Assembly: GCF_000023225.1 (NCBI RefSeq) | Contig: NC_013173.1 | Span: 1,366,501 to 1,430,500 of the forward strand | Length of the DNA stretch: 64,000 nucleotides | Origin: Desulfomicrobium baculatum DSM 4028 | GTDB taxonomy: Bacteria; Desulfobacterota; Desulfovibrionia; Desulfovibrionales; Desulfomicrobiaceae | Direction: 5' to 3' | In this document: piece by piece, positions 2,647-50,443 of the stretch | Position numbering within the stretch: the stretch's first letter is position 1 | How the letters are laid out: every line of letters begins with the position of its first letter | Notes under the pieces: model-generated | Databases searched by the model: none | What the model was told of the DNA's origin: nothing | Seen by the model: the letters and a program-made list of their open reading frames with translations, nothing else | Translations under genes and position numbers: made by a program

Positions 2647-2648
2647 AG

Positions 2649-3773: not shown

Positions 3774-3809
3774 TAATAATTCCTCGTTTTTTATATATAA
3801 AATTTTATT

Positions 3810-5685: not shown

Positions 5686-6156
5686 GTGAGAATAGCGTAT
5701 AATGTCTTGCTGTTGCTTGTGGTGGTAGTGGCTGGGGGCTGTGCCCATAAAGTGTCTCAAAATGATCTGGAAAATCGAATTCAGGCGTCTGCACGTTCCA
5801 CTGGAATTGAAATGGATGTTCAGAGAGCCAACGATTTGCTGGAAGCAGGGGATCGCGAGCAGGCACTTCGCATTTATGAATCTGTTTTGGAGAGTGGATT
5901 TTCAAGCGCTTCGTTCACAACTTCTGTTTTGACGAACGCGGCCCTTGCAGCGCTTCAGCTTGGAGAGCGTGACCTTTTTTTTAGGTATTGTGCTCGAATT
6001 GAAAATTCGCTCTCGCATCAAAAGTTCATTTCAAACAATACTCAGTTCGTACTTGCTCTTTATTTTGTAATGCAAGGCAGAGATATTGAGTCTCAAAATA
6101 ATTATGTAAGTCGTCGCGTTCGTGAATCTGTAAAAAATGCTTTGATGATTCGTTAG
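5686..6156 (+). CDS. Small TPR-like outer or inner membrane lipoprotein
   Basis: The GTG at 5686 is chosen because AGGAGG (5675-5680) precedes it by 5 bases; it gives 156 residues starting VRIAYNVLLLL. The hydrophobic stretch ends in AGGC, a lipobox with Cys19 as the acylation site, so the protein should be exported and lipid-anchored. Residues about 40-130 contain helix pairs such as ANDLLEAGDREQALRIYESV that look like tetratricopeptide repeats. It is the first gene of a run of closely spaced genes encoding membrane and periplasmic proteins, so it may assemble or localise that apparatus. Confidence 0.7.
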   Translation: MRIAYNVLLLLVVVVAGGCAHKVSQNDLENRIQASARSTGIEMDVQRANDLLEAGDREQALRIYESVLESGFSSASFTTSVLTNAALAALQLGERDLFFRYCARIENSLSHQKFISNNTQFVLALYFVMQGRDIESQNNYVSRRVRESVKNALMIR

Positions 6157-6164
6157 GAGAATAT

Positions 6165-6716
6165 ATGAAGATTATTTACACAGCAGCTTTTATTTGCATC
6201 ATAATGTGGGGATTCAGTTTCATCGCCGGTACGAACGCAAATGTTTCGGAAATTCTGCGTCAAGGTGCGAAGACTGTCATTAATCATGTAGCTGATCAGC
6301 TTAACGAAGAAACAGGAGAGAATCCGGAAAAGTTTGCTTCTGAGGATGATGGGAACGTTTTGCCTCGCACTGAAGAAAGCAACGCAAGCGTTGAGGAGTG
6401 GGTCGTAAACGAGGGACATGAGCAGTCTTCGCTTAATTCGACAGCGCAGAGGGTGAACCCTGAGCCCGCTTCAAATTCAAGTTACCCGCATATTATGGAT
6501 GCACAAATCCCTCAGGAGGTAGTTAGTGGACTGCAAAAGGACGTGGTGCTTGAAGCGGGTCAGGAGGTGGATCAGGATGTCACTCATAAGGAATCAACGG
6601 ATTTCAGCCAGGAGCGCATTCGCCAAGACGAGGAGCGAATGGCCGAAGAAGGGGCTCGGGCCGGTTATGAGGCTCATAGAGTGTTGGACGATATAGCTAC
6701 GATGTTGGGGCGATAA
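6165..6716 (+). CDS. Exported low-complexity acidic protein
   Basis: The 183-residue product begins with a Sec-type signal or anchor (about 5-22, hydrophobic, then TNANVSE). The body is polar and rich in Glu, Asn, Ser and Gln, with no recognised domain, and probably extended or disordered up to about 140. The C-terminal 40 residues are a likely charged helix (RQDEERMAEEGARAGYEAH). It starts 8 bases after the lipoprotein gene and is 12 bases before the next, so it belongs to the same operon. Function unknown; a periplasmic spacer or partner is a guess. Confidence 0.6.
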   Translation: MKIIYTAAFICIIMWGFSFIAGTNANVSEILRQGAKTVINHVADQLNEETGENPEKFASEDDGNVLPRTEESNASVEEWVVNEGHEQSSLNSTAQRVNPEPASNSSYPHIMDAQIPQEVVSGLQKDVVLEAGQEVDQDVTHKESTDFSQERIRQDEERMAEEGARAGYEAHRVLDDIATMLGR

Positions 6717-6728
6717 GAGGAGGACATC

Positions 6729-7112
6729 ATGAGAGTAAAACAATGGGGCGTTACGTTGGTGGCAATCGCGTGTGTATGTATCCTTCAGTCGGATATCGTT
6801 CAAGCTGGAGGATCGCGAAATCTTATGCCGGTTTTTATGCAAAAGCAGCAGGAATCTATTGGCAAAATAATGGAATGTTTTGTTCAGGTTGCTAGTCCGT
6901 CTGAATGGGCTTTGCCGATCCGTGACCTACTGACAGCCGAGATGGGAATGATCAATTACGGAATTAGCTACCTTGATCCGAGAATGTATTCCAGGTTTGC
7001 TGAAGGGCTCGGTCCTTCCGAGTATCCTCTTTTCGGGTGGAGGGTATTTCAGAGCAGGTATGCGGATTTGGGTGGTGGAGTTGTACGGCCTCATGAATCA
7101 TTTGAAAAGTAA
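6729..7112 (+). CDS. Small exported protein of unknown function
   Basis: The 127-residue product has a clear signal peptide (about 6-27, ending VQA before GG), preceded by the ribosome binding site GAGGA. The mature part has one Cys, several Tyr and Pro, and a segment NLMPVFMQKQQESIGKIMEC that is probably helical. No family recognised. The predicted location is the periplasm, like its neighbours. Confidence 0.6.
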   Translation: MRVKQWGVTLVAIACVCILQSDIVQAGGSRNLMPVFMQKQQESIGKIMECFVQVASPSEWALPIRDLLTAEMGMINYGISYLDPRMYSRFAEGLGPSEYPLFGWRVFQSRYADLGGGVVRPHESFEK

Positions 7113-7127
7113 AAGAGGAGAATCGTC

Positions 7128-7997
7128 ATGAAACACGTCAGCATTTATCTTGTTATTATGATTTTCATCCATATTGGGTCGGTTTATGCCGCAGAAAGTT
7201 CTCTGATGGTTCAATTGCCACAGAAAATCCAGAACTCTCTTGCCACAATTGAAAAGGTTGGTCGTGAAAGTGATAAAGAAATTGCCACGATGGAGTCATC
7301 GATAAAGGAAATTGTCGAGAAAATCGAGCATGCCAATGGTTCGAATGAAATCGTAATGCTCCAAAAGCAATATTTGGAAGGGCGGGCAAGAGTTCTGCGG
7401 GCGCAAGCTTACAGGACAGTTGCCGTAGAGGATGAACTGGCAAGCATTGCTGACAACATGCAGCGTCTTGCACAAGCCAGCCGGGACAGCCGTTCGTTTG
7501 GTCTTGGGGCAGGAATAAATCCAGGGGATGAGGAGGCGAAGAAAGGCGTATCCTCCATGTTGAAGGGCTTCAAAGGACTTTTAGGTATGGTCCAGCAGTT
7601 GAACCCTGATAAAAATCTGAACAGCCAGTTCGAAGCGCTTACAACGATGAACGAGACTGCTCGATCGTTCTTTGCCAAGAGAAGTGACGGTTCTCTCGAA
7701 GAGCAACAGCGTTTCATCCTTGAGTCATTAGTCTTGGCAAGTTCTGTGAAGAAAATTCTTTCTGCGGAGTATGACTATCTGCTTCAGCAGATTTATTATG
7801 TCGATACAAAAAACATAGTTAATCAGCTTGGAACAGTTCAGATTGCTTTAAAGAATGGTGGTTCAGGAATTGTTGAGGGAATCATTGATTTGCATACTCA
7901 GGATGATAAAGTTCTTAGGCATGAAGATAATTCATTCAAAGAAGTATCTTATGTGAATTCTAAAAATTTAGAGCATGTTGGAGATTTGAACAACTAA
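7128..7997 (+). CDS. Exported coiled-coil protein
   Basis: The 289-residue product has a Sec signal (about 5-22, cleavage near YAAES) behind GAGGAG. The mature protein is almost entirely helical and charged, with coiled-coil potential around 25-110 and again 180-220, and a polar C-terminal tail. No enzyme motif is visible. It lies directly upstream of the TolQ/ExbB-like channel gene, so a periplasmic partner of that channel is plausible. Confidence 0.6.
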   Translation: MKHVSIYLVIMIFIHIGSVYAAESSLMVQLPQKIQNSLATIEKVGRESDKEIATMESSIKEIVEKIEHANGSNEIVMLQKQYLEGRARVLRAQAYRTVAVEDELASIADNMQRLAQASRDSRSFGLGAGINPGDEEAKKGVSSMLKGFKGLLGMVQQLNPDKNLNSQFEALTTMNETARSFFAKRSDGSLEEQQRFILESLVLASSVKKILSAEYDYLLQQIYYVDTKNIVNQLGTVQIALKNGGSGIVEGIIDLHTQDDKVLRHEDNSFKEVSYVNSKNLEHVGDLNN

Positions 7998-8007
7998 GGT
8001 GGTTGCC

Positions 8008-8757
8008 ATGTTTGTTGAAAAAAAATTGGTAAGTAAGGTCGCAATTGGAATCATTCTCCTGGGCTTCATCGTCGTAACATTCATGATTCTTGGCAGATCC
8101 ATTCCTGAGCTGTTTCGTTACTATAACGACCTGTTTGGCCCAGTGTTTATCGTCCTGGTTCTGCTTACGGTTGCTCTTGCCGGGTCTATCTTTACAGCGA
8201 TTACCAGCAGGGATGATCTGGATGCGCGCAGCGCCCTTGCTGCCTTGCTAAAGGAGTTGAACAGCGAGGTCGCAGAGAGAAGGATCAAGGCGCTCCAGGT
8301 ATTGGTCTCAACAGGGCACAAGCAGTCTGCCTCGATATTAAGCAAGCATCTGCTTGAGGACAAGGCGGCTCTTGTTCGAGTCGTTTCTGCTCGCGGTCTT
8401 GGGGAGGTGGGAGGAAGAAAGGCGCTGGATTCTTTGAACCAGGCATTGGATGACGCAGAACTCGATGTCCGCCTGGAGGCAGCGAAATCGGTTTTTCAGA
8501 TCAAGCAGGTGGCTCCCAAGTCTTTGAGCCTGATTCAGGATGTTAGTCCCTCGGTGGGCCTACTCGGCACGGTGATCGGATTGATGATGGGCTTTGCCGG
8601 GATGAATTTGGCCGAAACGGAACTGGAGGTTGCCATTCAGAATATCACCAGGACCATGGCGATGGCCTGTTCCACTACCGTGTATGGGATTATCCTCGGG
8701 CTCGGAGCGATGCTGGCGATTGCTGTTCTGACTCGACGAGGAAACTCTGCTCAGTAG
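8008..8757 (+). CDS. TolQ/ExbB/MotA-type channel protein with inserted HEAT-like repeats
   Basis: The ATG at 8008 is preferred over the GTG at 7999 because TAAGGTGG (7994-8001) sits 6 bases before it; the product has 249 residues. Two membrane segments (about 10-30 and 44-65) are followed by about 90 soluble residues containing HEAT-like helix pairs (ASILSKHLLEDKAALVRVVS, then SLNQALDDAELDVRLEAAKS). Then come the family's signature segments: SVGLLGTVIGLMMGFAG (about 182-198) and a last segment TMAMACSTTVYGIILGLG. These match the TolQ/ExbB pattern GLLGTV..G plus AL..TA.G. The usual cytoplasmic loop is thus replaced by a repeat domain that normally binds proteins. With the ExbD-like protein two genes on, it should form a proton-driven inner-membrane motor. 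Confidence 0.78.
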   Translation: MFVEKKLVSKVAIGIILLGFIVVTFMILGRSIPELFRYYNDLFGPVFIVLVLLTVALAGSIFTAITSRDDLDARSALAALLKELNSEVAERRIKALQVLVSTGHKQSASILSKHLLEDKAALVRVVSARGLGEVGGRKALDSLNQALDDAELDVRLEAAKSVFQIKQVAPKSLSLIQDVSPSVGLLGTVIGLMMGFAGMNLAETELEVAIQNITRTMAMACSTTVYGIILGLGAMLAIAVLTRRGNSAQ

Positions 8758-8783
8758 AATGATCAATTTGTTTGGGGGGAACC

Positions 8784-9482
8784 ATGAGTATTTTCCGCGG
8801 ACTGCGCAATCTGTTGATGACGGCTTTGGTCCCGGTTCTGCTGCTCACGGCTGGGTCGGTCGAGAAGGCAAGGGCGGAAACAGGCTTCATGCTCCCGGAT
8901 CACGGGAGCGCGGCTGAAGCGGCTGTCGCAATTCATCGTGAGCTCTATGAACTCGAACGATTTGAAATCATGGGCCGGCGCAATGTCGAGACGTTGGCTG
9001 AAATGGTCCGAATCACCCCGGAGGGTTTGGAAAGGCAGTTCGCGAAAGCGGAATACCTCGGTGCCCGTGTAGAGCATGTTCGAGCATTCTCAGGTCGCGT
9101 AATCCGGCTGCTTAATTTCCAGGTCGCATTGATACGTCAGAAAGAGCTGGATCGGAAGATGTGGGAGGAACGGTGCTCCAGCCCACAATATCAGGGACTT
9201 CAGCGTCTACTCAAGATGGTGCTTTGGCTCGAGGCTGGGGCTCCCACCCCAAACAGCAAATCTGTGGGTGCGGAAGTGCTCGTGGTGCAGCAAGTCAGCG
9301 CAGATACTCATGCCTTGATCATGAGCGCACTCTTCTACCCTGCAACCCAAAGCGCCCAGGATTTGGAAACACTGAGGATGACCAAGCGCAATCTAGTCGA
9401 CGGCTTGAAATCGTTGCGAAAAGAATTGGTGTATCTGAGCGCCCGTTTGGATGCAGTCGAGGCCCAAGGAGGGGAAAAATGA
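8784..9482 (+). CDS. Exported helical protein between ExbB-like and ExbD-like genes
   Basis: The ATG at 8784 is preceded by GGGGGGA. The 232-residue product has an N-terminal signal (about 8-30, ending KARAETG, a good signal-peptidase site). The mature part is helical and charged, with long probable coiled helices at 55-110 and 190-230. No domain recognised. It sits between the two halves of the proton-channel pair and overlaps the ExbD-like gene by 4 bases (ATGA), so it is likely made together with them. Confidence 0.6.
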   Translation: MSIFRGLRNLLMTALVPVLLLTAGSVEKARAETGFMLPDHGSAAEAAVAIHRELYELERFEIMGRRNVETLAEMVRITPEGLERQFAKAEYLGARVEHVRAFSGRVIRLLNFQVALIRQKELDRKMWEERCSSPQYQGLQRLLKMVLWLEAGAPTPNSKSVGAEVLVVQQVSADTHALIMSALFYPATQSAQDLETLRMTKRNLVDGLKSLRKELVYLSARLDAVEAQGGEK

Positions 9483-9907
9483 AAGGCATGCTTAGCTTTC
9501 TGGACATCATCGCGATCCTGCTGATTGTGTTCATGGCGATCTCGGCCTTGTTGGCCAAGAACGCCGGCGACAAGTACCGCAAGGAGTATCAGACCAAGGT
9601 CGAACTCCTGGAGAAGGCCAGGCAGCAGGAGGAGCAAAAGGGGCAGGATATCGGTGAGTCGGACCTCTTCATTTCAGTCACAGCTGAAGGGAAGATGGTC
9701 ATGGAGGGCAGTCCGCTGCCGTCGGCGAAAACAGTCGGGTCTGTTCTTGAAATGGGGGATGCTCTGAAGCTGCTTCGTCCAACCAAGGCATACCTGCGCG
9801 TGGACAAGTCCGTGCCCACAGGGACAACGCAGGAAATTTTGCTCATCTGTCAGGAGTTGGGCGTGCTCGGATATCTCGTTGCGGCAGAGCCTGCCGTAGG
9901 GCGGTAA
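9479..9907 (+). CDS. ExbD/TolR-like protein
   Basis: The ATG at 9479 overlaps the preceding stop as ATGA. The 142-residue product begins LSFLDIIAILLIVFMAISAL, a single membrane segment with an Asp at its edge in the place where ExbD/TolR carries its essential Asp. A Lys/Glu-rich linker follows, then a periplasmic domain of the ExbD type: ISVTAEGKMVMEGSPLP, a strand with AYLRVDKSVP, and a C-terminal QEILLICQELGVLGYLVA. The normal family length is about 140 residues, so it is complete. It is the partner of the ExbB-like protein at 8008-8757. Confidence 0.8.
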   Translation: MKGMLSFLDIIAILLIVFMAISALLAKNAGDKYRKEYQTKVELLEKARQQEEQKGQDIGESDLFISVTAEGKMVMEGSPLPSAKTVGSVLEMGDALKLLRPTKAYLRVDKSVPTGTTQEILLICQELGVLGYLVAAEPAVGR

Positions 9908-9910
9908 GAT

Positions 9911-10660
9911 ATGAATCGGATTTCCTATGCGTTGGTTGCTGTTTCAATCCTTCTAGGTTTGTTTCTTTCCTGGCAATTTCAGGATGTTGTGCGTCAAGCG
10001 AATAACAATAAGGGGCCAGCCCCTGTCGCCGAGCAGGTCGCTGCGGAAAGTGCGGTGAATGTGCCCGTTCAGGTGGTGCGAGTCGAATGGCCCGATCCCC
10101 CGAAGCCTGTTGAGGAGAAAGAAAAAAAGCCGGGGGCAAAAGCGGCAAAAAAGCAGACTGACACCGTAAAGAAGAGTGGAAAGGGTGGAGGCGGAAAAGG
10201 TGGGGGGCTTCAGGTGGTCGGCGTGTTTGAGTGCGAAATGGAGTTCTACCTTGAAGTTATGCGTAAACATGGTGCCAAAGTGATTGTGTTTGAACAATCG
10301 AAGAAACGTTTTTTTGAATTGGCGTACGGAGATGATGTTAGGCCCATGGAGAGACTTGGATCAGATTTTAGCCCCGTTTCGCGTCGAATCACGGACGATT
10401 ATCCGGATTCACAGAAGTTGCTTGAGCGGGTCAGGAAGACCTGGGGGCCGGGTCAATACGAAGTATTGCTACTCCTGCCCACTCATCTTTCTAGCAGGAT
10501 CCAGAGTGAAATTCACGATCAACTCTCAAAGGTCAATGCGAAGAACGCGCAAGCTGTGTTTGTCACTTATTCCAAGGTCAACAATAAGTTACACGTAATT
10601 ATAAATAAAGCTGTGATGGGTGGAAAAGAGATATTTATCAGATCTTCAATATATTTATAG
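9911..10660 (+). CDS. Membrane-anchored TolA/TonB-like linker protein
   Basis: The 249-residue product has one N-terminal membrane segment (about 6-24) followed by a Pro/Lys/Glu-rich stretch (PDPPKPVEEKEKKPGAKAA) and a Gly/Lys-rich linker (about 85-98). Such linkers are typical of TonB and TolA, which span the periplasm. The C-terminal globular part (about 100-249) is unrecognised. It follows the ExbD-like gene by 3 bases, so it is probably the energy-coupled component of the apparatus. Sequence similarity to TonB itself is not visible. Confidence 0.6.
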   Translation: MNRISYALVAVSILLGLFLSWQFQDVVRQANNNKGPAPVAEQVAAESAVNVPVQVVRVEWPDPPKPVEEKEKKPGAKAAKKQTDTVKKSGKGGGGKGGGLQVVGVFECEMEFYLEVMRKHGAKVIVFEQSKKRFFELAYGDDVRPMERLGSDFSPVSRRITDDYPDSQKLLERVRKTWGPGQYEVLLLLPTHLSSRIQSEIHDQLSKVNAKNAQAVFVTYSKVNNKLHVIINKAVMGGKEIFIRSSIYL

Positions 10661-10672
10661 GAGATTTATATC

Positions 10673-10936
10673 ATGGTCAGAGAAGTTTGTTTGTTGGTTT
10701 ACTTGGCTGTTGTCATTTCTTTGTTTTTTATTTTCAATCATGATAAAATATCCAGGCTAATTGAAAGAGATGATAGGCCAAAACAAGCTATCATCCTTGA
10801 ATTGAAGCCAGCGCCTCCTGTAACAAAGGAGTCTGTTTCGAATAAGATTGCTGAAGTGAGAACATCTATACGAAAAGGAGTTCGTGAAATTGATGTCGCA
10901 CTGCGTGACGCTGAGAATGCTGAAAATGTGCGTTGA
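10673..10936 (+). CDS. Small single-span membrane protein
   Basis: The 87-residue product has one membrane segment (about 5-21), then a basic and helical periplasmic or cytoplasmic tail with a short ELKPAPPVTKE linker. AGGAG precedes the ATG. It is unrecognised and belongs to the envelope operon by spacing (12 bases from the previous gene). Confidence 0.55.
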   Translation: MVREVCLLVYLAVVISLFFIFNHDKISRLIERDDRPKQAIILELKPAPPVTKESVSNKIAEVRTSIRKGVREIDVALRDAENAENVR

Positions 10937-10968
10937 TACCAATAGTCAAGACATAAAGGTTGGTCGTT

Positions 10969-11496
10969 ATGAAGAAAATCATCATCACTGCTTCGTTGAT
11001 TTTTTCCATCATTCCCTGTGCGGCGAATGCTGATTTTCTGGGAGCCTTCGACTCCCTTGTCGAGATGTTTCGTGTGAATACGTTCTCTGAAAAAAAATAT
11101 AAGCCACAAAGAAATAATAAAAACGTATATTGGAATATAATTGTCGATGCATCTAGGCACTATGACGTCGACCCTTATATCATTCATTGTGTGATCAAAC
11201 ACGAGTCGTATTTTGATAAGAATGCGGTTTCTCATAAGGGTGCTATCGGACTCATGCAGCTCATGCCTGGTACGGCGAAGTCACTTGGGGTTGTAGACCC
11301 GTATAATCCTGTTCAAAATATCTATGGCGGAACACTGTATCTCAGAAAGATGCTGTACATGTTCGATAATGACTTGCGTTATGCACTTATGGCATACAAC
11401 GCCGGCCCTGGACGGGTGAAAAGAAACTCCATTCCAAAAGTTTCTTATGCTTATGCAGACAGAATTATTCGCGATTACAACGCTATGAGGCGATAA
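10969..11496 (+). CDS. Lytic transglycosylase, SLT domain
   Basis: The ATG at 10969 is chosen over upstream non-ATG codons because AAAGG lies 9 bases before it. The 175-residue protein has a signal peptide (about 3-21) and a Slt70-type domain: IKHESYFDKNAVSHKGAIGL with Glu79 as the catalytic acid, GLMQLMPGTA, then ALMAYNAGPGRV. This enzyme class cleaves peptidoglycan glycan strands and often opens the wall for trans-envelope machines. The domain makes up almost the whole mature protein, as in the small transglycosylases of secretion and conjugation systems. Confidence 0.88.
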   Translation: MKKIIITASLIFSIIPCAANADFLGAFDSLVEMFRVNTFSEKKYKPQRNNKNVYWNIIVDASRHYDVDPYIIHCVIKHESYFDKNAVSHKGAIGLMQLMPGTAKSLGVVDPYNPVQNIYGGTLYLRKMLYMFDNDLRYALMAYNAGPGRVKRNSIPKVSYAYADRIIRDYNAMRR

Positions 11497-11517
11497 AGCG
11501 GCGTTCGGGGGGTAACC

Positions 11518-11898
11518 ATGACTGATTGGGGAATTTCACTGCAAGATGCTCATTTGACTGGCAGCGAGCAAGAGTACTTTCAGGGAAAGTGGGGCATCCG
11601 CACTTTGGAAGGGCTTGTGTCATTCCTTCGTACTGAAGGCGTCATGTTTGAGGTCATGGAAGATCTGGGGATGGATGCGGCACAGTTCGCCGATACGCGG
11701 CAGCGACTCGAATCTCAGCTGCCGCTGCAAACCTTGAAGCATATTGATGAGCAGGGAAAGTTCACGCCTTTTCTTGGGGCGCTTTTCGTCGAAAGCGTTG
11801 AATGTGAGAATCGGGCGGAAAGCCTTGAAACGGGCACAGAGGACATGGATCCGAGCCAAGCGCACGAATCTGATGCCGTGGAGACGGATGATGATTGA
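11518..11898 (+). CDS. Small protein sharing a helical domain with the downstream protease
   Basis: The 126-residue product has no signal peptide. Residues about 25-70 (WGIRTLEGLVSFLRTEGVMF, then a helix ending LESQLP) align with residues 22-66 of the next gene product (LGLKTVEGFLSLMQ, ending LREHLP). The shared pattern is G-x-[RK]-T-x-E-G-x-x-S. The C-terminal 40 residues are acidic and low complexity. It overlaps the protease gene by 11 bases. The shared domain suggests direct interaction between the two proteins; that is inference. Confidence 0.6.
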   Translation: MTDWGISLQDAHLTGSEQEYFQGKWGIRTLEGLVSFLRTEGVMFEVMEDLGMDAAQFADTRQRLESQLPLQTLKHIDEQGKFTPFLGALFVESVECENRAESLETGTEDMDPSQAHESDAVETDDD

Positions 11899-13324
11899 TA
11901 TTCGCTCACTACCGGGTGTTCCCAGTGATATCTTGATGGGCTTGGGGCTGCTTGGTTTAAAGACCGTGGAGGGGTTTCTTTCGCTCATGCAGATCCATGA
12001 AAGCCGCGAGGCTTTCAAGAAAATGGTCGGTTTGAGCGAAAGTGCACTGGGGCGCAGCATTCAGCAGCTTCGCGAGCATCTTCCGAAAAGCTGCGGGGCC
12101 ATGCACCCATCGCCTGTAATGCCGGTTCAGCTTGGTTTGAGCTGGGGCCATGTTGAGGCGTCATATCCTGCAAACTATTTTGGATCGATGGCCCATGATT
12201 CTTCCGAGGAAGAAGTCGATCTCATTCCTCAGTTGCCACCTGTTCGTAATCAGGGGCGGCGCGGAACTTGTGTCGCTTTTGCCGCTACGGCCGCCTTCGA
12301 ACATGAAATGCGCAGGAATGGCCTGTTCGGAATAGGAAATGTCCTCGCGTTCACGCGTACGAGAAGCGGGCGCAAAATTTTCCGTAGATTTGATGATGAA
12401 ACCAAGATGCTTTCGCCGCAGTTTTTGTACTGGGCCTGCAAAAGCGCGGACGGGGTTGATGGCCCAGGGACGATGATCTCAACAGCCATGGAATGCTTGC
12501 ATGATCGTGGATGTTGTCCGGAAAAAGACTGGCCATATTCCCCTGATTCGCAGTGGGGAAATGAAGGACAGGGGCCACCGCCGTTTGGCGCCGAGGAATC
12601 TGCGAGGAAGCGACGTATTGCGCAATATGATGAACTGACGAGCTTCGGCTCCGTCCCCCTTCAGCATATGAAGCGATTGCTGGCACAAGGTCATTTGCTG
12701 GTATTTGGCGTGCCCGTGTTTCCAAGCTGGGGAAATATCGAAACCCAGCAGACAGGACGAGTGATCATGCCCATCTCCGGAGAGCAATCTCTCGGTGGCC
12801 ATGCGCTGTGTCTCTGCGGGTATAGAGACGATGGTTCTTGCCCGGGAGGTGGGGTATTTTACTTCAGAAATTCATGGGGCGAAGAATGGGCTTCCCAGAA
12901 TATCAGAGGAAGAGGGTACGGCGAAATGCCATACGCATACATGCAGATGTATGCCAGGGATGTTTATTCGATGAGGTGCGAGGCAACAGGTCTGCTGAAT
13001 TTCCCTGTAGCTGCCGTCCGAGCGGCGATTGAGCCTGGAGTCGCTTTTATTAAGTCCGCGGCTATGGTCATGCTGACAGTGGCAATCATGAGCATGGGCT
13101 CCCTTGTTGCCTGGCAATTCGGTCGGGCGGTTCAGTTGCCGACGGCCGAACCTCAGATGGATACGCAGCAGCCCGTTGAGCAGGTATATTCAGCTGCTAT
13201 GGAGCCAAAGGAAGAAGGCACAAGTTCGGAAGATAGAGTGTTAGAAAACGAAGAAATGTTGTCAACGAACAATGTTTATATCCTTAATATTCTTGAAGAC
13301 GTAAAGAATATATTGAATAGGTGA
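11888..13324 (+). CDS. Membrane-anchored papain-like cysteine protease
   Basis: Start ATG 11888 or 11891, overlapping the previous gene; 478 residues from 11888. After the helical domain shared with the upstream protein (about 10-66) comes a C1A peptidase domain. NQGRRGTCVAFAA has Gln122 of the oxyanion hole and Cys128, GGHALCLCGY has His305, and FYFRNSWGEEW has Asn328, completing the papain triad. No signal peptide is seen. A single membrane segment (about 388-412) follows, with an acidic tail of about 65 residues. Papain-like proteins of this kind are uncommon in bacteria. Without a signal, the protease domain would face the cytoplasm and the tail the periplasm. It ends the envelope operon and precedes the pseudokinase gene. 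Confidence 0.82.
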   Translation: MMIDIRSLPGVPSDILMGLGLLGLKTVEGFLSLMQIHESREAFKKMVGLSESALGRSIQQLREHLPKSCGAMHPSPVMPVQLGLSWGHVEASYPANYFGSMAHDSSEEEVDLIPQLPPVRNQGRRGTCVAFAATAAFEHEMRRNGLFGIGNVLAFTRTRSGRKIFRRFDDETKMLSPQFLYWACKSADGVDGPGTMISTAMECLHDRGCCPEKDWPYSPDSQWGNEGQGPPPFGAEESARKRRIAQYDELTSFGSVPLQHMKRLLAQGHLLVFGVPVFPSWGNIETQQTGRVIMPISGEQSLGGHALCLCGYRDDGSCPGGGVFYFRNSWGEEWASQNIRGRGYGEMPYAYMQMYARDVYSMRCEATGLLNFPVAAVRAAIEPGVAFIKSAAMVMLTVAIMSMGSLVAWQFGRAVQLPTAEPQMDTQQPVEQVYSAAMEPKEEGTSSEDRVLENEEMLSTNNVYILNILEDVKNILNR

Positions 13325-13361
13325 ATTTTCTTTCACTTAAATTATTACGTGTGGGGTCGTT

Positions 13362-15029
13362 ATGGCACTATTTGCTGTTGGATCAAAAATTTTTAAAGAT
13401 TATACGTGTAAATTTTTTGTTGGGTCAGGAATTTATGGTGAATTATATCATGTCCTAAGCTCTTCTGGAGCTCCGTATGCGCTCAAAGTTTATTATGATG
13501 ATGTATTATTGATGAATGAGTGTGTAGCTGTTCAAGATTTATCTTTGTGCGTGAATAAGCATTTAGTAAAAATACATGATTTTGATTATACAGTAGATGG
13601 ATATTTTTGTGTATTAACTGAATTTATTGAGAAGAATTTTGTAAGCATTGTCAGTGATTCTCCTTGTGATGAAGGGGTTGCATTCGATTATTTTCAGCAA
13701 CTGATGGAGTGCTTAGATGTTTTAGATTTTTATAACATTCCACATGGTCATATAAAACCATCGAATATATTTATCAAAGATTCATTGATGATAGTTGGTG
13801 ATTATGGTACATCAAGATATTGTGCGCTGTATAATAATGAGTATTTGTCTTGTCTGCCTGAGTTTGGGTATATGTGCCCAAGTAGTATTGGGTGTCGCTG
13901 TGGGCGATGGTCCGACCGTTGGTCTGTCGCTGTAATTTTTTATAAATTACTGACGGGCCACTTTCCGTTCCATGCTGGATCTTTTGTTAATAATAAACTT
14001 TCTGATATAAATATTGATTATGTATTAAATAAAGTAACAAAAAAATACAGAGAAATATTTGAGCATTTTTTTAGATTTTATTCTGATATAGAATCACATT
14101 GTAAGAATGAATATGATGTAAAAAAAATTATTTCAGCACATAGTATGCGATTCAATAAAGAGCAGTGTCGTAACGTTAAAACAATTTATGAATACGATAG
14201 TCAATCAAATATTATTCTGGGCCGCATAAATCCTGAACTTGGAGAAAGTATTGTAGAGCCGATATTGGGAATGCGTTTTGTATGGATTCCTGCTGGGGCA
14301 TTCGTTATGGGCGGTAATGATGACCCGGAAAGTTGTGAATTCGAAGAACCTGTCCACCAAGTTGTTTTGAGTAAAGGTTTTTGGATGGGTATCTATGCGG
14401 TTACCCAGAAACAATGGAAGGGACTGGTGGCTTCTCATCCGTCTTTTGTTCAAGATGATATCCGACCGGTTACAAACATCTCGTGGTATGATGCTCAAGA
14501 GTTTGCGCGCACGTTTACTGAGTGCTCGAAAGGTGTGAAATTTGCTTTGCCTACTGAGGCGCAGTGGGAGTATGCATGTAGAGCAGGGACAATTACTCCA
14601 TACTATTGGGGCGATGAGGCGGAGTGCTGGCTAGCTAATTATGGTAATGGGCTTACTCAAGAGTGCAGAAATCGTAATCCTGGGGTATCTTCTCCCGTTG
14701 GGTGCTATCCGCCCAATCCTTGGAAGCTATATGATATGTGCGGAAATGTCTGGGAATGGTGCCAAGATTATGCTGGTCGCTATGGGGCTACAATACAGAT
14801 TGATCCCTGTCTTTTGCAACGCTCAGAAAGCGCTTTTCAGGTTCCCTCAAGGTATTCATCACTCTGGTTTCCAGAGCGATCCGTCATCCATGACCCGCGT
14901 ATATGTCGTGGAGGGTGCAATTTTGATTATTCTAATGCCTTGAGGTCCTCGGCACGTGGTGTCGCTTCAGCACAAGAAGGCAGAATCAATCTCGGATTTC
15001 GTTTGGTAATGACTGTTGACGAGAGTTAA
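13362..15029 (+). CDS. Pseudokinase fused to FGE/C-lectin-like domain
   Basis: The 555-residue product has a protein-kinase-like N-terminal half: glycine loop GSGIYG (21-26), Lys42 in YALKVYY, then HGHIKPSNIF (128-137) in place of HRDLKPxN, and DYG (147-149) for DFG. The catalytic Asp of HRD is His130, so it is probably inactive as a kinase. Residues about 300-550 form a formylglycine-generating-enzyme (sulfatase-modifying factor) domain: MRFVWIPAGAFVMGG, FALPTEAQWEYACRAGT, LYDMCGNVWEWCQDY, and the final GFRLV. The C-terminal region has no Cys pair where active FGE has its two redox cysteines. The kinase half is strongly AT-rich while the FGE half is not, suggesting domain shuffling. Both halves probably bind ligands or proteins. 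Confidence 0.8.
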   Translation: MALFAVGSKIFKDYTCKFFVGSGIYGELYHVLSSSGAPYALKVYYDDVLLMNECVAVQDLSLCVNKHLVKIHDFDYTVDGYFCVLTEFIEKNFVSIVSDSPCDEGVAFDYFQQLMECLDVLDFYNIPHGHIKPSNIFIKDSLMIVGDYGTSRYCALYNNEYLSCLPEFGYMCPSSIGCRCGRWSDRWSVAVIFYKLLTGHFPFHAGSFVNNKLSDINIDYVLNKVTKKYREIFEHFFRFYSDIESHCKNEYDVKKIISAHSMRFNKEQCRNVKTIYEYDSQSNIILGRINPELGESIVEPILGMRFVWIPAGAFVMGGNDDPESCEFEEPVHQVVLSKGFWMGIYAVTQKQWKGLVASHPSFVQDDIRPVTNISWYDAQEFARTFTECSKGVKFALPTEAQWEYACRAGTITPYYWGDEAECWLANYGNGLTQECRNRNPGVSSPVGCYPPNPWKLYDMCGNVWEWCQDYAGRYGATIQIDPCLLQRSESAFQVPSRYSSLWFPERSVIHDPRICRGGCNFDYSNALRSSARGVASAQEGRINLGFRLVMTVDES

Positions 15030-15348
15030 GAGGATGTTTGTTGGGTTTGTGTATATGGAACATGTTGATCGAGGCGCTGAGCGATAGTCAGTGGTAGAAA
15101 CATGTCTCCGTCAAGCCCAAGAGGCCCTGAAAGCGGTGCAACAGGTTCTAAATTTCAACCAGTTGCCTTATCAGTGTCGGGCCTTTTGGGCTTTTTGTCG
15201 TGAAGGAATTTAATAAATTGAAATTTCAGGTTTTTTTAAATATCACACGTCATCGAAAGACGTAGTGAAGTTTGTTGTGATGAGAATTAATGGCTTTGGA
15301 TAGTTCGTTTTGTACTTTGTTCAGTATATGCGAAAGAAAGAGGTTTTT
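15030..15348. other. Intergenic region with long-loop inverted repeat
   Basis: About 320 bases without a gene. It holds the terminator-like repeat at 15113-15193 and, after it, AT-rich DNA that should contain the promoter of the STAND gene. GAAAGAAAGAGG precedes its ATG by 5 bases. A short ACGTC/GACGT repeat lies near 15247-15263. Confidence 0.45.
15113..15196 (+). terminator. Long-loop hairpin terminator after the pseudokinase-FGE gene
   Basis: AAGCCCAAGAGGCCC (15113-15127) pairs with GGGCCTTTTGGGCTT (15179-15193) with one mismatch across a 51-base loop, and the second arm runs into a T tract. The T tract favours a terminator over a random repeat, though the loop is unusually long. Confidence 0.5.
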
Positions 15349-18300
15349 ATGTCTGATTCTGGTATATTCAAGTTTGATGATGAAAAGTATCGCTATATTC
15401 CTGGGCCACTATTCACTATAGTCAAGGAATTTCACATTGAAGAGAATGTTTTTAAAAAAGCTCATCGTCTTATAAATCTCTTTGAGTGGATATATAAATG
15501 GCATTCTGTATTGGTAGTATCAGATTTAATGCGTGGAAATAAAATTGCTGAAGATATGAAGTTGTTTTTATCTCAAGTTCTCAGAGAGCCTTCTATGGGT
15601 AATTGGTATTATATTTTCGACTATGCTCTCGAAGAAATGAGCGCATTTTCAATTGCTTGGGTCAATCTTGAAACCTTGAGAGCTAAACATAAGCGCCATA
15701 GTATTGTCAGCTTTCGTAATAAATACGCCCATGGAGCGATGCCTGACGATGATGAGTGTATTTTAGACTGCAAGGAGTATTATCCGGTTTTGCAGGACCT
15801 CTTAGATAGCAAAATGATGAAGGATCTAAGATTGCTGGTCGGTCATTCAGGATCAACCATTATGCTTTTGGGTCCTGATGAAATTTCCGTCGAAAAAGAT
15901 GTGCCCTCTGGCCAAGCCGCAGTCCTTCTGCCAGATGGACAGTTGCTCGATATATGGCCGTTAGGCGTGTACCAAGAAGATCCTCTAGGGATTAAAGGTA
16001 AAGGTTTTTACTTTTTCAATTCCATTCGCCAAAAAAAGGAGGCGATTGAGCAACTCAGCTACGAATTGCCTTCTCTTAGGAGAAACACAAATTTCTGGCG
16101 GCCATTTCTAAAGGTCTTTCCGCTGAAGGACTGGGGTCAGTTGCCTGGTTGGGATTTTGAGAATTTTCGATCAAACATCGAGCAACTCACAGAGAACTTC
16201 AAAGGAAGAGAGTTGGAGCAACGGGAGATCAAGGACTTCATGCTCAATGGCCATGGCACGTTCATGGTGTGGGGTGGTCCCGGCATAGGCAAAAGTGCCC
16301 TCGTTGCTAAGGCGTTAAAAGTTGTCCGCGCTGAAAGCTCTAAAACGTCATCGCCTAGCAACGTAATTATAATAGAGTATTTTATAGAGCGCTCAAGTTT
16401 TTACGCAAGTGTTACCGAATATTTGAGATATGTTAATAAAAAGCTTGATAAGTATTACAAAATAAAAGGGATCCCCATAGGAAATGATGAATCAGAAATG
16501 AGAATGAGATTAGAAGAGCGGTTGAATAGAATAGAAAATAAGATCAATAATGAAATGGTGCTTCTGGTAGTGGACGGATTGGATGAGTGCCCTGAAATCC
16601 GAAATTATATTCCTAAATCCCGTTATTGGCTCAATGTTTTGATTCTTTCAAGGGAGATAGTAGAGGTTAAAGATTGGTGGCGAACACACGACAGGGAAAA
16701 TAAGAGCGAAAAGAATTTAGAGAAATTATCAGATAATGAGATAATTTCACTTTTGTATGATGTTGTCGATAAATACCAGAAAGGGTTCAATAAAGAGTAC
16801 GTATTTGAGGTATGTCGTCGATCAGAAGGCAATCCTTTATATTTGAAACTGCTTTGTGATCAGATTTATGATCATGGAGGGATGGTTGAGTCGATAGATA
16901 AGATTCCAACAAGTTTGACAGATCTTTATGCTTCTACTTTAAAGCGGATAAGTCAGCAACAAGGGGGCGCAGTAGCGCTAAATGTTCTGCGGATTTTGGC
17001 TGTAGCTAAAGATGCACTTTCTGTAAACATGATTCGTTTGATTTTGAGTCATAATAATAAAATACATATTGACACACAGGAGATCATTAACGGAATTGAT
17101 TTGTGTCGTGAGTTGTTATTTGAAAAATTTGAGAAAAATATTAAAGAATATAAGTTTTTTCACGATTCATTGCGAAGTTGGATAGAAATAACTTATCATA
17201 ATGAAAAATTAATGTTTTCCGGGTTATTAGCATGGTTATGCAGAAATTGGAGAGAATTTTCTGATTATGAGGCTAAAGTTTATTGTTTTAAGTTTGCCGC
17301 CGAGCATTTGTATGATGTAGGTGATGAAGATGGAATGTGGGAACTAATAAATGATAAAGAGTATTTTTCTGAACAGTTAAAATATTGTGAAAATTTTAAT
17401 CTAGAGTCTATTACATTAAAAAATGCAGTCACATTATATGAAAATTCAAATAGAGCATTGTCTTTGTCAAGATTTCTCTATGCAGCGATGAGGCTTCGTC
17501 GAGTTATAAGAGATTCAGAGGGGAGATTGTTTAGCAAAGCAAAACAATATTTGTTTTTGAATTTATCTAATATAGATTTAGACGAAATAAAAAGTATTTT
17601 ATTTGATGACGATTATATAAATAATCCAGTTTTTTTAAATATATTTCTTCATGTTTTGGATAAAGAATGTAGTAATTATATTAACAAAATTGTTTTTGAT
17701 AATCATAAAATTATACTAATGATTGAAGAAGTGTTTAAAATATACAATGTTTCAACTATTGATCTCAGATTTATAAGTAATAATTTTTGTGTGTCTCTTA
17801 TAGATAAAATTTATTATATATTTAAAAGTAGTAATATAAATTTAGCTTTTGATTTTTCAGTTTTACTTATAAGAGCATATCCTTCATTAACAAAGAAGTT
17901 AATACGTATTACTATCAGCAAAAAAGATTCATGCTATTATGACTATTTTATTTTACTTTTAAAATTTGTTCAAGAACATGATTCAACTGAATTAAAAGAT
18001 GTTTTGTTTTTATTGGTTTTTAAGTGTGATATGGTGCATATTAAAAAACTAATTTTAAATAATATTTTAACAAAATATATATCATACTGCAAACAAGAGT
18101 ATGAAATTAATCATTTGTTAATTACTTTAGTTAAAAGGATGTCTCGTGAGGGAATGTTTAGAGAATCTTTATCAGTGATCTCTCATGTTCATGAAGAAGC
18201 ATTAATAAAAAAACTTGTATTTATTGTTCTTCAGAACATGATCATTGATGGGCGATTTGAAGAAAACAATTATTGTATCGAAAGTTATATGGAGTATTTG

Positions 18301-22045: not shown

Positions 22046-22050
22046 TACAT

Positions 22051-22092
22051 CCGCCATGGTTGAAGGATTTCAACCATGGCGGATTTCTTTTT
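22051..22092 (+). terminator. Strong intrinsic terminator after the nucleotidyltransferase gene
   Basis: A perfect 14-bp stem, CCGCCATGGTTGAA paired with its complement (22051-22064 and 22069-22082), has a 4-base loop and runs into ATTTCTTTTT. It separates the nucleotidyltransferase gene from the methyltransferase-ligase-kinase genes. Confidence 0.9.
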
Positions 22093-22128
22093 CGAATCAA
22101 GTCACAACAAGTGGGGCGTAGTGTTTAT

Positions 22129-24792: not shown

Positions 24793-24863
24793 TAATGACC
24801 TGAAGAGCCCGTTCATCATATGGGCCTTGCGCATGGACCTGTAGGTTTGTGCGGCCTCAGGAA

Positions 24864-27095: not shown

Positions 27096-27156
27096 GGTGT
27101 CAGGGCACGGAGAAATTTTCGTATTTTTTAGTTCATTGTCAGTTTTTGTCTTTCGT

Positions 27157-27164
27157 CACCGTAA
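27157..27164 (+). promoter_or_regulatory. CACCGTAA element upstream of the mini-gene
   Basis: CTTTCGTCACCGTAA, almost identical over 14 bases to the site at 24785 (CTTTCATCACCGTAA). It lies 142 bases before a 26-codon frame with a strong ribosome binding site. Confidence 0.5.
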
Positions 27165-27306
27165 TCCACTTTCAGAAAGGCTGAACATCGTCTCGATAAC
27201 TGGGAGGCTGCCGGCGAGGCAGTTTGGCAGACAGACCAGATTAGATCTTCGGTGCGAATTGGCTGGGTTGCATGATTGAAACTGAATGAACAAAGGAGAT
27301 TTTTCC

Positions 27307-35949: not shown

Positions 35950-35976
35950 GTTTTTATGACTCAAGGAGTGGTGAAA

Positions 35977-37506
35977 ATGGTCTCATCGTGCCTGGATTGC
36001 TGGCAATACGACGCCCAGATCGGTGGCGGGGCATTTGGGGTGGTGTACCGAGTTCGAAATGATGTCGGCGTTCTCAAGGCCTTGAAAGAGTTTTGCGCCG
36101 AGACATGCGTCGAGTACAAAGAGAAGGAGATCGGTGAGTTCTTGAATCTCCTTTCTCCGCGTATCGTCAAGCCCGAGTGCTGGGGCATGGACGCGGAGGG
36201 GCGCTTGCGCGTGGTCACGGAATTTCTGCCAAATCCCTTGCGGTCGCTTCTGGGGCCTCTTCCTCTGGATGAGAAGAAAGTCATCTGGATTTTTGAAGAG
36301 ATTCTCAAAGGACTGGTGGAACTGGAGCGCCATGGGTTCGTGCACGGAAATCTGAAGCCGTCAGACATTTTCTTATGCGGAGAAAATGTGAAGATCGGAG
36401 ATGCCTGGATTCCGCTCTTTGTGCGTGGTTTGAGCCCGGTATCCGTGACTCCGAGCATGTATGACAATTATAGTGCGCCAGAAAGGTTCAAAAGAAAGTA
36501 CGGTTCTAGTGTTGACCGTTGGGCCGCTGCTGTGATTTTATACGAAATGCTTTCTGGAACAAGCCCGTTTCCCTCATTTCCTCTCTCGGATTTCATGCAG
36601 GCCATCATGAACGATGAACCTGACTTCTCGAATATTCCGGATAAATATTTTCCCTTTCTGTTTCGCTGTTTCATGAAGGATCCTGCTGAGCGTGAAGAGA
36701 ACCATCCGTCTGCTGAAGCCATGCTCGATGACTTCCGGTGGGCGTGTTCGAGAAAGGCAGTCGTTGCAAAGAAGCGCACAAGTCAATCTGTTACAGGCCC
36801 TGAGCCTGGAAATCCTTGGGCTGATTCTGCAACGGGAATGGAATTTGTATGGATTCCGCAAGGTGAATTCATGATGGGCTCGGCAGATAATGCTCAAAAT
36901 GCATTTGATGATGAGAAGCCAAGCCATCTTGTAGTGTTCAGTCAAGGATTCTGGATGAGCAAATACCCGGTTACGGCCTCCCAGTTTTATCGCCACGTAT
37001 TGGGCGGTGCACTCAGTAATGCACTGCACGAATTTAACCATCCAGTCAGAAATGTATCCTGGAAGCGGGCCCAGGACTTTGTTCGATGGCTCAACGACCA
37101 ACCACGGGAAGAAATTGTCAATTTTTCACTGCCGACAGAGGCGCAGTGGGAGTATGTTTGTAGGGCCGGGACGACGACACGGTTTTACTGGGGCGAGGAA
37201 TGCGAGCCCGAGAATGCCCCATTCGGATTGAATGCCTCAGTCCCAGTAGGCTCATTTCCTCCCAACCCGTGGGGGTTGCACGACATGCTTGGCAATGTTT
37301 GGGAATGGTGTCTCGATACTTATGATGGGAATGCATACTCGCGCCATGCTGAGATTGACCCGGTTCATGTAGGGGCTGGGGAGAATAAGGTGATCCGTGG
37401 TGGGGGTTGGGATACGCGTGTTGGGGCTGTTGGGGTGGCGCGGAGAGGGTGGTTTGGTTTGGATGGTGAAGGGGGGAGTCTTGGGTTTAGGGTGGTGGTT
37501 GTATAA
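35977..37506 (+). CDS. Second pseudokinase-FGE fusion
   Basis: The ATG at 35977 follows AAGGAG by 8 bases; 509 residues. The kinase half has IGGGAFGVVYRV (15-26) but HGNLKPSDIF (123-132) for HRDLKPxN and GDAW for DFG, so the catalytic Asp, the Asn and the metal-binding motif are all altered. The FGE half begins GMEFVWIPQGEFMMGS near 287-302 and runs through SLPTEAQWEYVCRAGT and LHDMLGNVWEWC to GSLGFRVVVV. No redox Cys pair precedes GFR. The last 120 bases are strikingly G/T-rich and poor in C. It has the same domain order as the 13362 gene but is much more GC-rich, so the two copies diverged long ago or arrived separately. Confidence 0.82.
   Translation: MVSSCLDCWQYDAQIGGGAFGVVYRVRNDVGVLKALKEFCAETCVEYKEKEIGEFLNLLSPRIVKPECWGMDAEGRLRVVTEFLPNPLRSLLGPLPLDEKKVIWIFEEILKGLVELERHGFVHGNLKPSDIFLCGENVKIGDAWIPLFVRGLSPVSVTPSMYDNYSAPERFKRKYGSSVDRWAAAVILYEMLSGTSPFPSFPLSDFMQAIMNDEPDFSNIPDKYFPFLFRCFMKDPAEREENHPSAEAMLDDFRWACSRKAVVAKKRTSQSVTGPEPGNPWADSATGMEFVWIPQGEFMMGSADNAQNAFDDEKPSHLVVFSQGFWMSKYPVTASQFYRHVLGGALSNALHEFNHPVRNVSWKRAQDFVRWLNDQPREEIVNFSLPTEAQWEYVCRAGTTTRFYWGEECEPENAPFGLNASVPVGSFPPNPWGLHDMLGNVWEWCLDTYDGNAYSRHAEIDPVHVGAGENKVIRGGGWDTRVGAVGVARRGWFGLDGEGGSLGFRVVVV
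37383..37506 (+). other. G-tract-rich coding end, possible G-quadruplex
   Basis: The end of the gene has GGTGGGGGTTGGG, GTTGGGGCTGTTGGGG and later GGGGGG runs, with very few C. Four G runs within about 40 bases (37397-37437) meet the usual pattern for an intramolecular quadruplex on the plus strand. Confidence 0.4.
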
Positions 37507-50436: not shown

Positions 50437-50443
50437 AAAAACT

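What the first reader, a model, noticed from the sequence alone, without database searches (positions are those of the whole stretch)
5686..15029. Candidate undescribed trans-envelope machine: TolQ/TolR pair, transglycosylase, papain-like protease and pseudokinase-FGE
A run of tightly spaced genes encodes a lipoprotein, exported helical proteins, an ExbB/TolQ-like channel, an ExbD/TolR-like partner, a TolA/TonB-like linker protein, a Slt-type transglycosylase and a papain-like protease with a C-terminal membrane anchor, then a pseudokinase-FGE gene. Proton-driven pairs drive Tol, Ton, flagella and Zorya defence, but I know of no described system with this gene set. There is no OmpA/MotB-type wall anchor and no Zorya helicase.
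Basis: partly seen in the sequence, partly recalled or inferred. Interest (0 to 1): 0.85.

Follow-up and report, generated by a model that had tools for sequence, protein, structure and literature searches.

The report
Envelope motor operon with immune-type protease
One bacterial operon joins an ion-driven envelope motor to a protease-and-sensor set of a kind thought to trigger immune or cell-death responses; the protease part recurs in a few distant bacteria, but its link to the motor was seen only here and its function is untested.

Summary
Thirteen same-strand genes (5686-15029) form one tight run: gaps of at most 37 bp, two overlaps. They encode a lipoprotein, exported proteins, a TolQ/ExbB channel with a cytoplasmic HEAT insert, a TolR/ExbD partner, two anchored linker proteins, an exported SLT transglycosylase, a small helical protein, a membrane-anchored papain-like protease and a pseudokinase-FGE protein.
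The last three genes are a recurring module. The papain protein carries an N-terminal adaptor domain, and the gene before it encodes the same domain alone (hhalign E 3e-12). That gene pair recurs in 5 of 6 non-Chloroflexota loci (0 of 11 Chloroflexota loci tested); FGE proteins, mostly fused to caspase or kinase, lie nearby in 4 of those 6. This resembles the adaptor-peptidase-FGE logic of published bacterial conflict systems.
No locus examined puts TolQ/R or SLT genes beside this protease, so the motor-protease link rests on one operon. It is not Zorya: no ZorA tail, no OmpA domain.
Best reading: an ion-motor envelope sensor wired to a cytosolic protease alarm (0.45). Main rival: two independent modules side by side in an FGE-rich island.

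The parts
5686..6156 (+). g1: lipoprotein (lipobox VVAGGC), weak TPR; GTG start with AGGAGG upstream
   Evidence: sequence; TPR_16 E 0.0034, below cut-off
6165..6716 (+). g2: N-terminal TM or signal, low-complexity acidic exported region
   Evidence: hydropathy; no family
6729..7112 (+). g3: small protein with signal-like N-terminus
   Evidence: hydropathy; no family
7128..7997 (+). g4: exported, coiled-coil-like
   Evidence: hydropathy; only insignificant family matches
8008..8757 (+). g5: TolQ/ExbB-type channel with HEAT repeats in the cytoplasmic loop; 4 TM-like segments (11-29, 47-65, 179-197, 223-241)
   Evidence: HEAT_2 1.2e-14, MotA_ExbB 9.7e-13; TolQ 1.1e-7, below cut-off; hydropathy
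8784..9482 (+). g6: exported helical protein between the two channel genes
   Evidence: hydropathy; no family
9479..9907 (+). g7: TolR/ExbD-type partner with the TM aspartate (FLDIIAILLIVFM); no OmpA domain
   Evidence: ExbD 1.3e-7; start and 4-bp overlap
9911..10660 (+). g8: N-terminal TM, Pro/Lys/Gly linker, C-terminal globular-looking region (linker or force-transducer architecture)
   Evidence: sequence and hydropathy; no significant family
10673..10936 (+). g9: 87-aa protein, one N-terminal TM, short periplasmic part
   Evidence: hydropathy; no significant Pfam family
10969..11496 (+). g10: exported SLT lytic transglycosylase; catalytic Glu in KHESYF...GLMQLMP (motif recalled)
   Evidence: SLT 8.8e-28; sequence
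11518..11898 (+). g11: standalone small helical adaptor domain plus acidic tail
   Evidence: hhalign to papain N-domains 97.6%, E 3.2e-12; AF2 block pLDDT 90-94 over residues 11-70
11891..13324 (+). g12: adaptor domain (1-65), papain-like C1 protease with Q121/C127/H304/N327, C-terminal TM (~385-410), tail of about 65-70 aa
   Evidence: Peptidase_C1 2.1e-9; catalytic residues in 19 of 19 rows; model, nearest PDB 3ois xylellain
13362..15029 (+). g13: pseudokinase (HGHIKPSN for HRDLKPxN) fused to an FGE/C-type-lectin-fold domain
   Evidence: Pkinase 2.7e-18, FGE 5.9e-43; alignment
35956..37506 (+). related part outside the operon: second pseudokinase-FGE, 30% identical to g13 over 540 aa, in a MoxR-vWA-type FGE cluster

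Best explanation
The operon is a composite alarm system spanning the envelope. Shown from sequence: a TolQ/TolR-like ion channel (g5, g7) with its own HEAT platform; linker proteins, exported proteins and a lipoprotein (g1-g4, g6, g8, g9); a peptidoglycan-cutting SLT enzyme (g10); a small adaptor (g11); a papain protease with a membrane anchor carrying the same adaptor (g12); and a pseudokinase-FGE protein (g13). Inferred: the channel complex uses ion flow to probe or remodel the envelope, with SLT opening the wall locally. A disturbance such as phage entry or an envelope breach changes the HEAT platform on the cytoplasmic side. The FGE domain binds a foreign or damage-related ligand and the dead kinase acts as a scaffold. 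Homotypic g11-g12 adaptor contacts then cluster and activate the papain protease at the membrane, which cleaves cellular targets and stops or kills the cell. It works like Zorya in outline (motor senses, cytosolic effector acts) but with a protease effector of the adaptor/FGE conflict-system kind.
For: Single tight operon. Channel and partner families with the TM Asp and the GTVxG/TT residues intact (residue roles recalled). C1 catalytic residues in 19 of 19 rows and a confident papain fold. g11 and the g12 N-domain are one family (hhalign 97.6%, E 3.2e-12; 89.7%, E 1.8e-6 for g12 alone), and the adaptor gene directly precedes the papain gene in 5 of 17 loci tested, all five among the 6 non-Chloroflexota loci L044-L049. 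FGE proteins near it in 4 of those 6. Four of the genome's five FGE genes lie in this window, and g13 is homologous over its length to the pseudokinase-FGE of the MoxR-vWA-type cluster. In PADLOC the g13 kinase matches defence kinases (mad6 2.7e-20, PD-T4-6 9.3e-13), though any kinase may do so. Published logic: FGE as invader sensor and adaptor domains recruiting protease effectors (PMC8195603 section 7; PMC10907252 passages); ZorAB as a sensing motor that recruits its effector to the membrane (PMC11890865 passages).
Against: No other locus seen joins the motor genes to the protease module. Base composition is mosaic (g5-g7 0.52-0.56 GC, g9-g10 0.39-0.42, kinase half of g13 0.32), as expected of parts brought together recently. 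In the published systems one adaptor copy usually sits on the NTPase/FGE protein; g13 shows no adaptor domain. The FGE, pseudokinase and STAND parts may belong functionally to neighbouring systems. No phage or stress phenotype is known; in PADLOC the channel shows only ZorA-core similarity (2.2e-6) and a HEAT-repeat match (6.1e-9) and g12 none.
Confidence: 0.45

Rival explanations
1. Two independent modules. g1-g10 is a stand-alone Tol-like envelope machine and g11-g13 is a separate adaptor-papain-pseudokinase-FGE conflict cassette that landed behind it in a mobile, FGE-rich island; they share a promoter but not a mechanism.
For: The g11-g12 pair with FGE neighbours recurs without detected TolQ/R or SLT genes in other phyla. 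Composition changes along the operon. The region holds other FGE systems, a relaxase and two IS copies.
Against: Gaps of 21 and 37 bp with no break between the modules. The papain protein is itself anchored in a membrane by its predicted TM.
Confidence: 0.33
2. A Ton/Tol-type uptake, secretion or surface-assembly machine. The SLT enzyme makes room in the wall, the papain protease processes or quality-controls a passenger from the cytoplasmic side, and the FGE protein regulates it.
For: TolQ 1.1e-7, ExbD 1.3e-7, exported proteins, lipoprotein and SLT together. SLT genes commonly serve trans-envelope machines (established knowledge).
Against: No outer-membrane receptor or channel family among the 13 gene products in Pfam. 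The FGE and adaptor parts resemble conflict systems, not secretion. The papain should face the cytoplasm.
Confidence: 0.15
3. A degenerate or recently shuffled neighbourhood without joint function.
For: No relative of the whole set was found; the composition is mosaic.
Against: All 13 frames are open, ribosome-binding-like sites precede most of them, catalytic residues of the protease are kept.
Confidence: 0.07

Closest known systems
Zorya (ZorA/ZorB plus effectors)
   Same: Ion-channel pair of the MotA/TolQ superfamily; a proposed sense-at-envelope, act-in-cytosol logic
   Different: No long C-terminal ZorA tail (g5 ends about 8 residues after its last TM), no OmpA/peptidoglycan-binding domain on g7, no Zorya effector seen; protease and SLT instead; HEAT repeats in the loop
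Tol-Pal / Ton (TolQRA, ExbBD-TonB)
   Same: Family matches of g5 (TolQ 1.1e-7) and g7 (ExbD 1.3e-7); linker-type partners; lipoprotein
   Different: No TolA, TonB, TolB, Pal or receptor family match; an extra N-terminal TM and HEAT insert; SLT and protease in the operon; the genome has four other MotA/ExbB-family genes
FGS (FGE)-centred conflict systems with effector-associated domains (PMC8195603, PMC10907252)
   Same: FGE domain as putative sensor; a small helical adaptor present both alone and fused to a peptidase; kinase or caspase fusions and a STAND-like gene nearby
   Different: Here the peptidase is papain-like C1 and the adaptor resembles HhH/SAM folds only weakly; it was not compared with their EAD set; no reverse transcriptase; linked to a TolQ/R motor
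MoxR-vWA ternary systems (PMC7159879)
   Same: An AAA_5 plus vWA (CobT_C) pair with FGE and pseudokinase-FGE genes lies downstream in the window (28696-37506); catalytically dead kinases are a stated feature
   Different: The operon in question has no MoxR, vWA or third component of its own
Xylellain (PDB 3ois), bacterial C1 protease
   Same: Closest solved structure of the protease domain
   Different: 24% identity; by sequence the match covers the protease domain only (residues 176-352)

Membership tests
Zorya | ZorA with elongated C-terminal cytoplasmic tail | tested here: not met
   g5 ends about 8 residues after TM4; ZorA models match the channel core only, best E 2.2e-6
Zorya | ZorB with peptidoglycan-binding OmpA-type domain | tested here: not met
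   g7 matches ExbD over 3-134 of 141, no OmpA in Pfam; ZorB E 0.036
Zorya | ZorC/D, ZorE or ZorF/G effectors | tested here: inconclusive
   PADLOC was run on g5, g7, g12, g13 and three left-hand genes: no such effector match (best 25 of 27 families shown for g13); the other operon proteins were not run against PADLOC
Tol-Pal / Ton | TolQ/ExbB and TolR/ExbD pair | tested here: met
   MotA_ExbB 9.7e-13, ExbD 1.3e-7; TolQ 1.1e-7 but far below the equivalog cut-off
Tol-Pal / Ton | TolA/TonB, TolB, Pal or TonB-dependent receptor | tested here: not met
   No such family in g1-g13 in Pfam; g1-g8, g11, g12 also in NCBIfam
FGS/EAD conflict systems | FGE (C-type-lectin-fold) domain fused to signalling domain | tested here: met
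   g13 Pkinase plus FGE
FGS/EAD conflict systems | Small adaptor shared by two genes, one fused to an effector peptidase | tested here: met
   g11 and g12 N-domain, hhalign E 3.2e-12; in the published cases one copy is usually on the NTPase/FGE protein, which g13 lacks
FGS/EAD conflict systems | Adaptor belongs to one of the described EAD families | not tested
   no EAD profiles were at hand; no Pfam family matched g11
FGS/EAD conflict systems | Central NTPase (STAND and others) | tested here: inconclusive
   A STAND-like gene (NPHP3_N 6.4e-6) follows at 15310-20409, 280 bp downstream; whether it belongs is unknown
FGS/EAD conflict systems | Diversity-generating retroelement (often, not always) | tested here: not met
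   No RVT_1 match in the genome
Papain (C1) peptidases | Gln, Cys, His, Asn catalytic residues in papain fold | tested here: met
   19 of 19 rows; 276 PDB chains at Foldseek E <= 0.001, the 50 listed mostly papain-like proteases
Immune function | Protection from phage or regulated cell death | not testable with these tools
   needs experiments

The most novel reading that the evidence does not exclude
A second, unrecognised class of ion-motor immunity: a TolQ/R-type motor with a cytoplasmic HEAT sensor platform and a wall-cutting enzyme that, on envelope breach, switches on a membrane-anchored papain protease through homotypic adaptor contacts, with a pseudokinase-FGE sensor adding specificity.
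Probability: 0.28. Interest if true: 0.87.

Novelty: new variant of a known kind. Interest (0 to 1): 0.6.

Why it matters
If the two halves work together, this would be, as far as I know, a second case besides Zorya in which an ion-driven envelope motor controls a cytosolic defence effector, and the first with a protease, linking envelope sensing to a caspase-like alarm. Apart from that, the conserved adaptor-papain gene pair with FGE neighbours is a testable effector module; I found no description of it in the literature searched (listings; passages and one section of PMC8195603, passages of PMC7159879; most subscription papers are not held).

Tried and rejected
Composite transposon: two identical 1201-bp IS copies (IS3-family by recalled features and rve/HTH_21 Pfam matches) flank most of the window in the same orientation, but each has its own 3-bp repeat at its ends (TAT; AGC), so they look like independent insertions. 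DGR diversification: no reverse transcriptase in the genome. Zorya: see the membership test. Plasmid-borne spread: no hit for g5 (1e-5), g8, g6 or g4 (1e-2) in 72,556 plasmids; 21 plasmid records hit by g12 are C1 proteases or unannotated places, the 20 listed matched over 51-60% of the query, and the neighbourhoods of 5 of the 21 showed nothing alike. Viral contigs: nothing for g5, g8 or A4. No Rfam match.

Adaptor fold: Foldseek gave no match at E <= 0.001; VIA-align put HhH N-domains of RAD51 and its paralogues (Z up to 7.0) and a SAM domain (Z 5.2) on top. This is suggestive only, since Z under 8 can mean a common arrangement.

Relatives of g5: 51 of 395 genomes matched at 1e-4. Of 14 loci translated, 13 read as ordinary ExbB/TolQ/MotA proteins; L001 was printed in a wrong frame. 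Checked afresh, 28 of 57 fetched loci hold an ExbB-type ORF, and only the window's own locus holds HEAT and ExbB in one ORF. In 76 loci (308 kb) none held g5 together with any other operon gene, but most of these loci are about 3 kb long, so this is a weak test. In the phylum sample 25 of 26 A4 hits start after the adaptor part of the profile (the earliest at position 62 and 68; at most 5 candidates per genome were scored). Matches in two other phyla (11 of 129; 1 of 125) are partial; the two regions fetched held no second operon gene. One search gave 29 loci; 18 with the adaptor domain went into A4, and 11 were dropped (L068 truncated, ten without the domain seen). Papers on Tol/Ton evolution (PMC12204202, PMC12505986) were seen as passages only: no HEAT-ExbB or papain link in those passages.
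Full report
WHAT IS THERE. The window lies at 1366501-1430500 of a 3.94-Mb single-contig genome; no call names the organism. Thirteen same-strand genes run from 5686 to 15029. Gaps are 8, 12, 15, 10, 26, -4, 3, 12, 32, 21, -8 and 37 bp; the next listed ORF begins at 15310, 280 bp on. Most genes carry a purine-rich ribosome-site-like stretch just upstream. Pfam finds HEAT_2 (1.2e-14) and MotA_ExbB (9.7e-13) in g5, ExbD (1.3e-7) in g7, SLT (8.8e-28) in g10, Peptidase_C1 (2.1e-9) in g12, and Pkinase (2.7e-18) plus FGE-sulfatase (5.9e-43) in g13. g2, g3, g4, g6, g8 and g11 have no significant match in Pfam, NCBIfam or PHROGs; g9 was run against Pfam only and g1 not against PHROGs.

TOPOLOGY (hydropathy; inference). 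g5 has four TM-like segments, with the HEAT repeats between the second and third, that is in the cytoplasmic loop of a TolQ/ExbB protein, plus one extra N-terminal TM. It keeps the GTVxG and TT residues of the channel, and g7 keeps the TM aspartate (residue roles recalled). g7, g8 and g9 each have one N-terminal TM; g1 has a lipobox; g10 has a signal-like N-terminus. g12 has no evident signal peptide but a TM after its protease domain, so the protease should be cytoplasmic. g11 and g13 look soluble and cytosolic.

THE PROTEASE MODULE. A profile of g12 and a distant plasmid C1 protease found 29 loci in the collection of 84,980 species genomes (a pattern scan, so not exhaustive). Eighteen of them (twelve Chloroflexota, six others: Phycisphaerae, Verrucomicrobia and an unclassified bacterium, by record title) share the N-terminal domain as well and are 29-36% identical to g12 in the alignment. 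Gln, Cys, His and Asn of the active site are present in 19 of 19 rows. The model of g12 residues 1-417 has mean pLDDT 80.6, with about 90 over the first 60 residues, and its closest solved structure is xylellain, 3ois, E 4.7e-19.

THE ADAPTOR PAIR. g11 and the g12 N-domain are the same small helical domain: profile comparison of six standalone copies with ten papain-fused copies gives 97.6% probability, E 3.2e-12; against g12 alone, 89.7%, E 1.8e-6. A gene for the standalone copy sits directly before the papain gene in L044, L045, L046, L047 and L049, that is in 5 of 17 loci tested, all five among the six non-Chloroflexota loci; three of the five overlap the papain gene, as in the window. It was not seen before L048 or in the 11 Chloroflexota loci tested (only the two longest upstream ORFs per locus were shown; L055 not tested). 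In 9 of 12 Chloroflexota loci the papain is instead the front part of a protein of 967-1055 aa (L043, L054 and the contig-cut L055 are shorter). FGE domains lie in the held flanks of L044, L047, L049 (caspase-FGE) and L045 (kinase-FGE): 4 of 18 loci, 4 of the 6 non-Chloroflexota ones. L046 has a caspase-Sel1 protein instead. A later family member, L104, showed no g13/FGE match in its 20 kb. Flanks are cut by contig ends in several MAGs, so these counts are lower bounds. Four of the six non-Chloroflexota papain proteins also have TM-like segments near the C-terminus.

RARITY. Full-length members of this papain family were found in 1 of 395 genomes of the window's phylum sample (only the window's own genome), 3 of 294 of the Phycisphaerae locus's phylum (two already known) and 1 of 240 of the Verrucomicrobia locus's phylum (already known). 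g5 has no counterpart at 1e-8 in 246 other genomes of the class sample. Among 57 fetched loci with channel or HEAT matches, only the window's own has both in one ORF; hits without a fetched locus were not read.

THE LINK BETWEEN THE HALVES. No ExbB match (HMM, E < 1) and no match to g1-g4 or g6-g11 (phmmer, E <= 0.01) occurs among 2,736 ORFs of the 29 loci plus L104; the one g5 phmmer hit, in L048, is an ORF that looks rich in HEAT-like repeats. The HMM recovered 10 of 10 control loci, three of which had served to build it. ExbD and SLT were sought only with the single sequences g7 and g10 there, so divergent ones could be missed. In 76 other loci, mostly about 3 kb long, no g5 match coincides with a match to another operon gene. 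So the motor-protease pairing is documented in one genome only. In its favour stand the tight operon, the predicted membrane anchor of the protease, and the HEAT platform that a cytosolic effector could dock on.

NEIGHBOURHOOD. The window is rich in related systems. Four of the five FGE genes of the genome are here, within 24 kb. g13 is 30% identical over 540 aa (E 4e-69) to another pseudokinase-FGE at 35956-37506, which lies with an AAA_5 (MoxR-type, my label) protein (30408-32975), a vWA/CobT_C protein (32972-34771), two standalone FGE genes and a double AAA protein. Both kinases lack the HRD aspartate (HGH and HGN). Kaur et al. 2020 (PMC7159879, passages) describe MoxR-vWA systems with FGE effectors and mostly dead kinases. 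PMC8195603 (section 7 read) proposes FGE domains as invader sensors with STAND, kinase and peptidase partners. PMC10907252 (passages) describes an adaptor (EAD8) shared by an FGE protein and a nearby trypsin-like protease. g11-g12-g13 fit that grammar loosely, with a papain protease and with the second adaptor copy on its own rather than on the FGE protein. There is no reverse transcriptase, so no diversity-generating element.

MECHANISM PROPOSED. Shown: the parts, their order, the intact catalytic residues of the protease, the shared adaptor, the recurrence of the adaptor-papain pair with FGE neighbours. Inferred: topology, ion flow, the HEAT platform as the signal relay, FGE as sensor, homotypic activation of the protease, and cell arrest or death as output. 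Zorya (PMC11890865, abstract and passages) offers the working precedent: ion flow, peptidoglycan binding and the cytoplasmic tail matter there, and the effector goes to the membrane on infection. Here the tail and the wall-binding domain are absent, so the resemblance is of logic, not of membership.

VERDICT. The sequence observation is right. The operon is not a known Tol, Ton, MotAB or Zorya system by the tests made. Its last three genes are a recurring variant of adaptor-peptidase-FGE conflict modules, not described in the literature I could search. Whether the TolQ/R-SLT genes form one machine with them is open: 0.45 joint, 0.33 two modules, 0.15 transport or secretion, 0.07 no joint function.

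Noticed in passing
window 20666-24696 and 46619-47737: A nucleotidyltransferase-like gene, a methyltransferase and an RNA-ligase-like gene (named by eye), an HD plus AAA_33 kinase and RtcB: looks like an RNA-repair set near the MoxR-vWA-type cluster.
   Followed up: partly
window 24849-37506: Double AAA protein, two FGE genes, AAA_5 (MoxR-type), vWA (CobT_C) and pseudokinase-FGE, with a HAD-like gene by eye: a MoxR-vWA/FGE-type system.
   Followed up: partly
window 37904-45545: Run of glycosyltransferase and radical-SAM genes (one with SPASM).
   Followed up: no
window 15310-20409: 1699-aa STAND-like protein (NPHP3_N 6.4e-6), 30% GC, after the operon.
   Followed up: no
genome 1365386-1366586 and window 55575-56775: Two identical 1201-bp IS copies, same orientation, each with its own 3-bp repeat at its ends; the left one seems to interrupt the gene at 60-410.
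   Followed up: yes
window 50378-51925: Relaxase (3e-6); suggests a mobilisable element.
   Followed up: no
window 514-4772, - strand: Three-gene set: a protein with a weak Lon_C protease match (1.8e-3), a protein with a zinc-finger-like N-terminus, and one with a sigma-like C-terminus by eye.
   Followed up: no
L045 2921-13536: Papain-adaptor locus also encodes two coiled proteins that look ESCRT-III-like by eye (no Pfam hit for the one tested), an AAA protein with AAA_lid_3 and two kinase-FGE proteins.
   Followed up: partly
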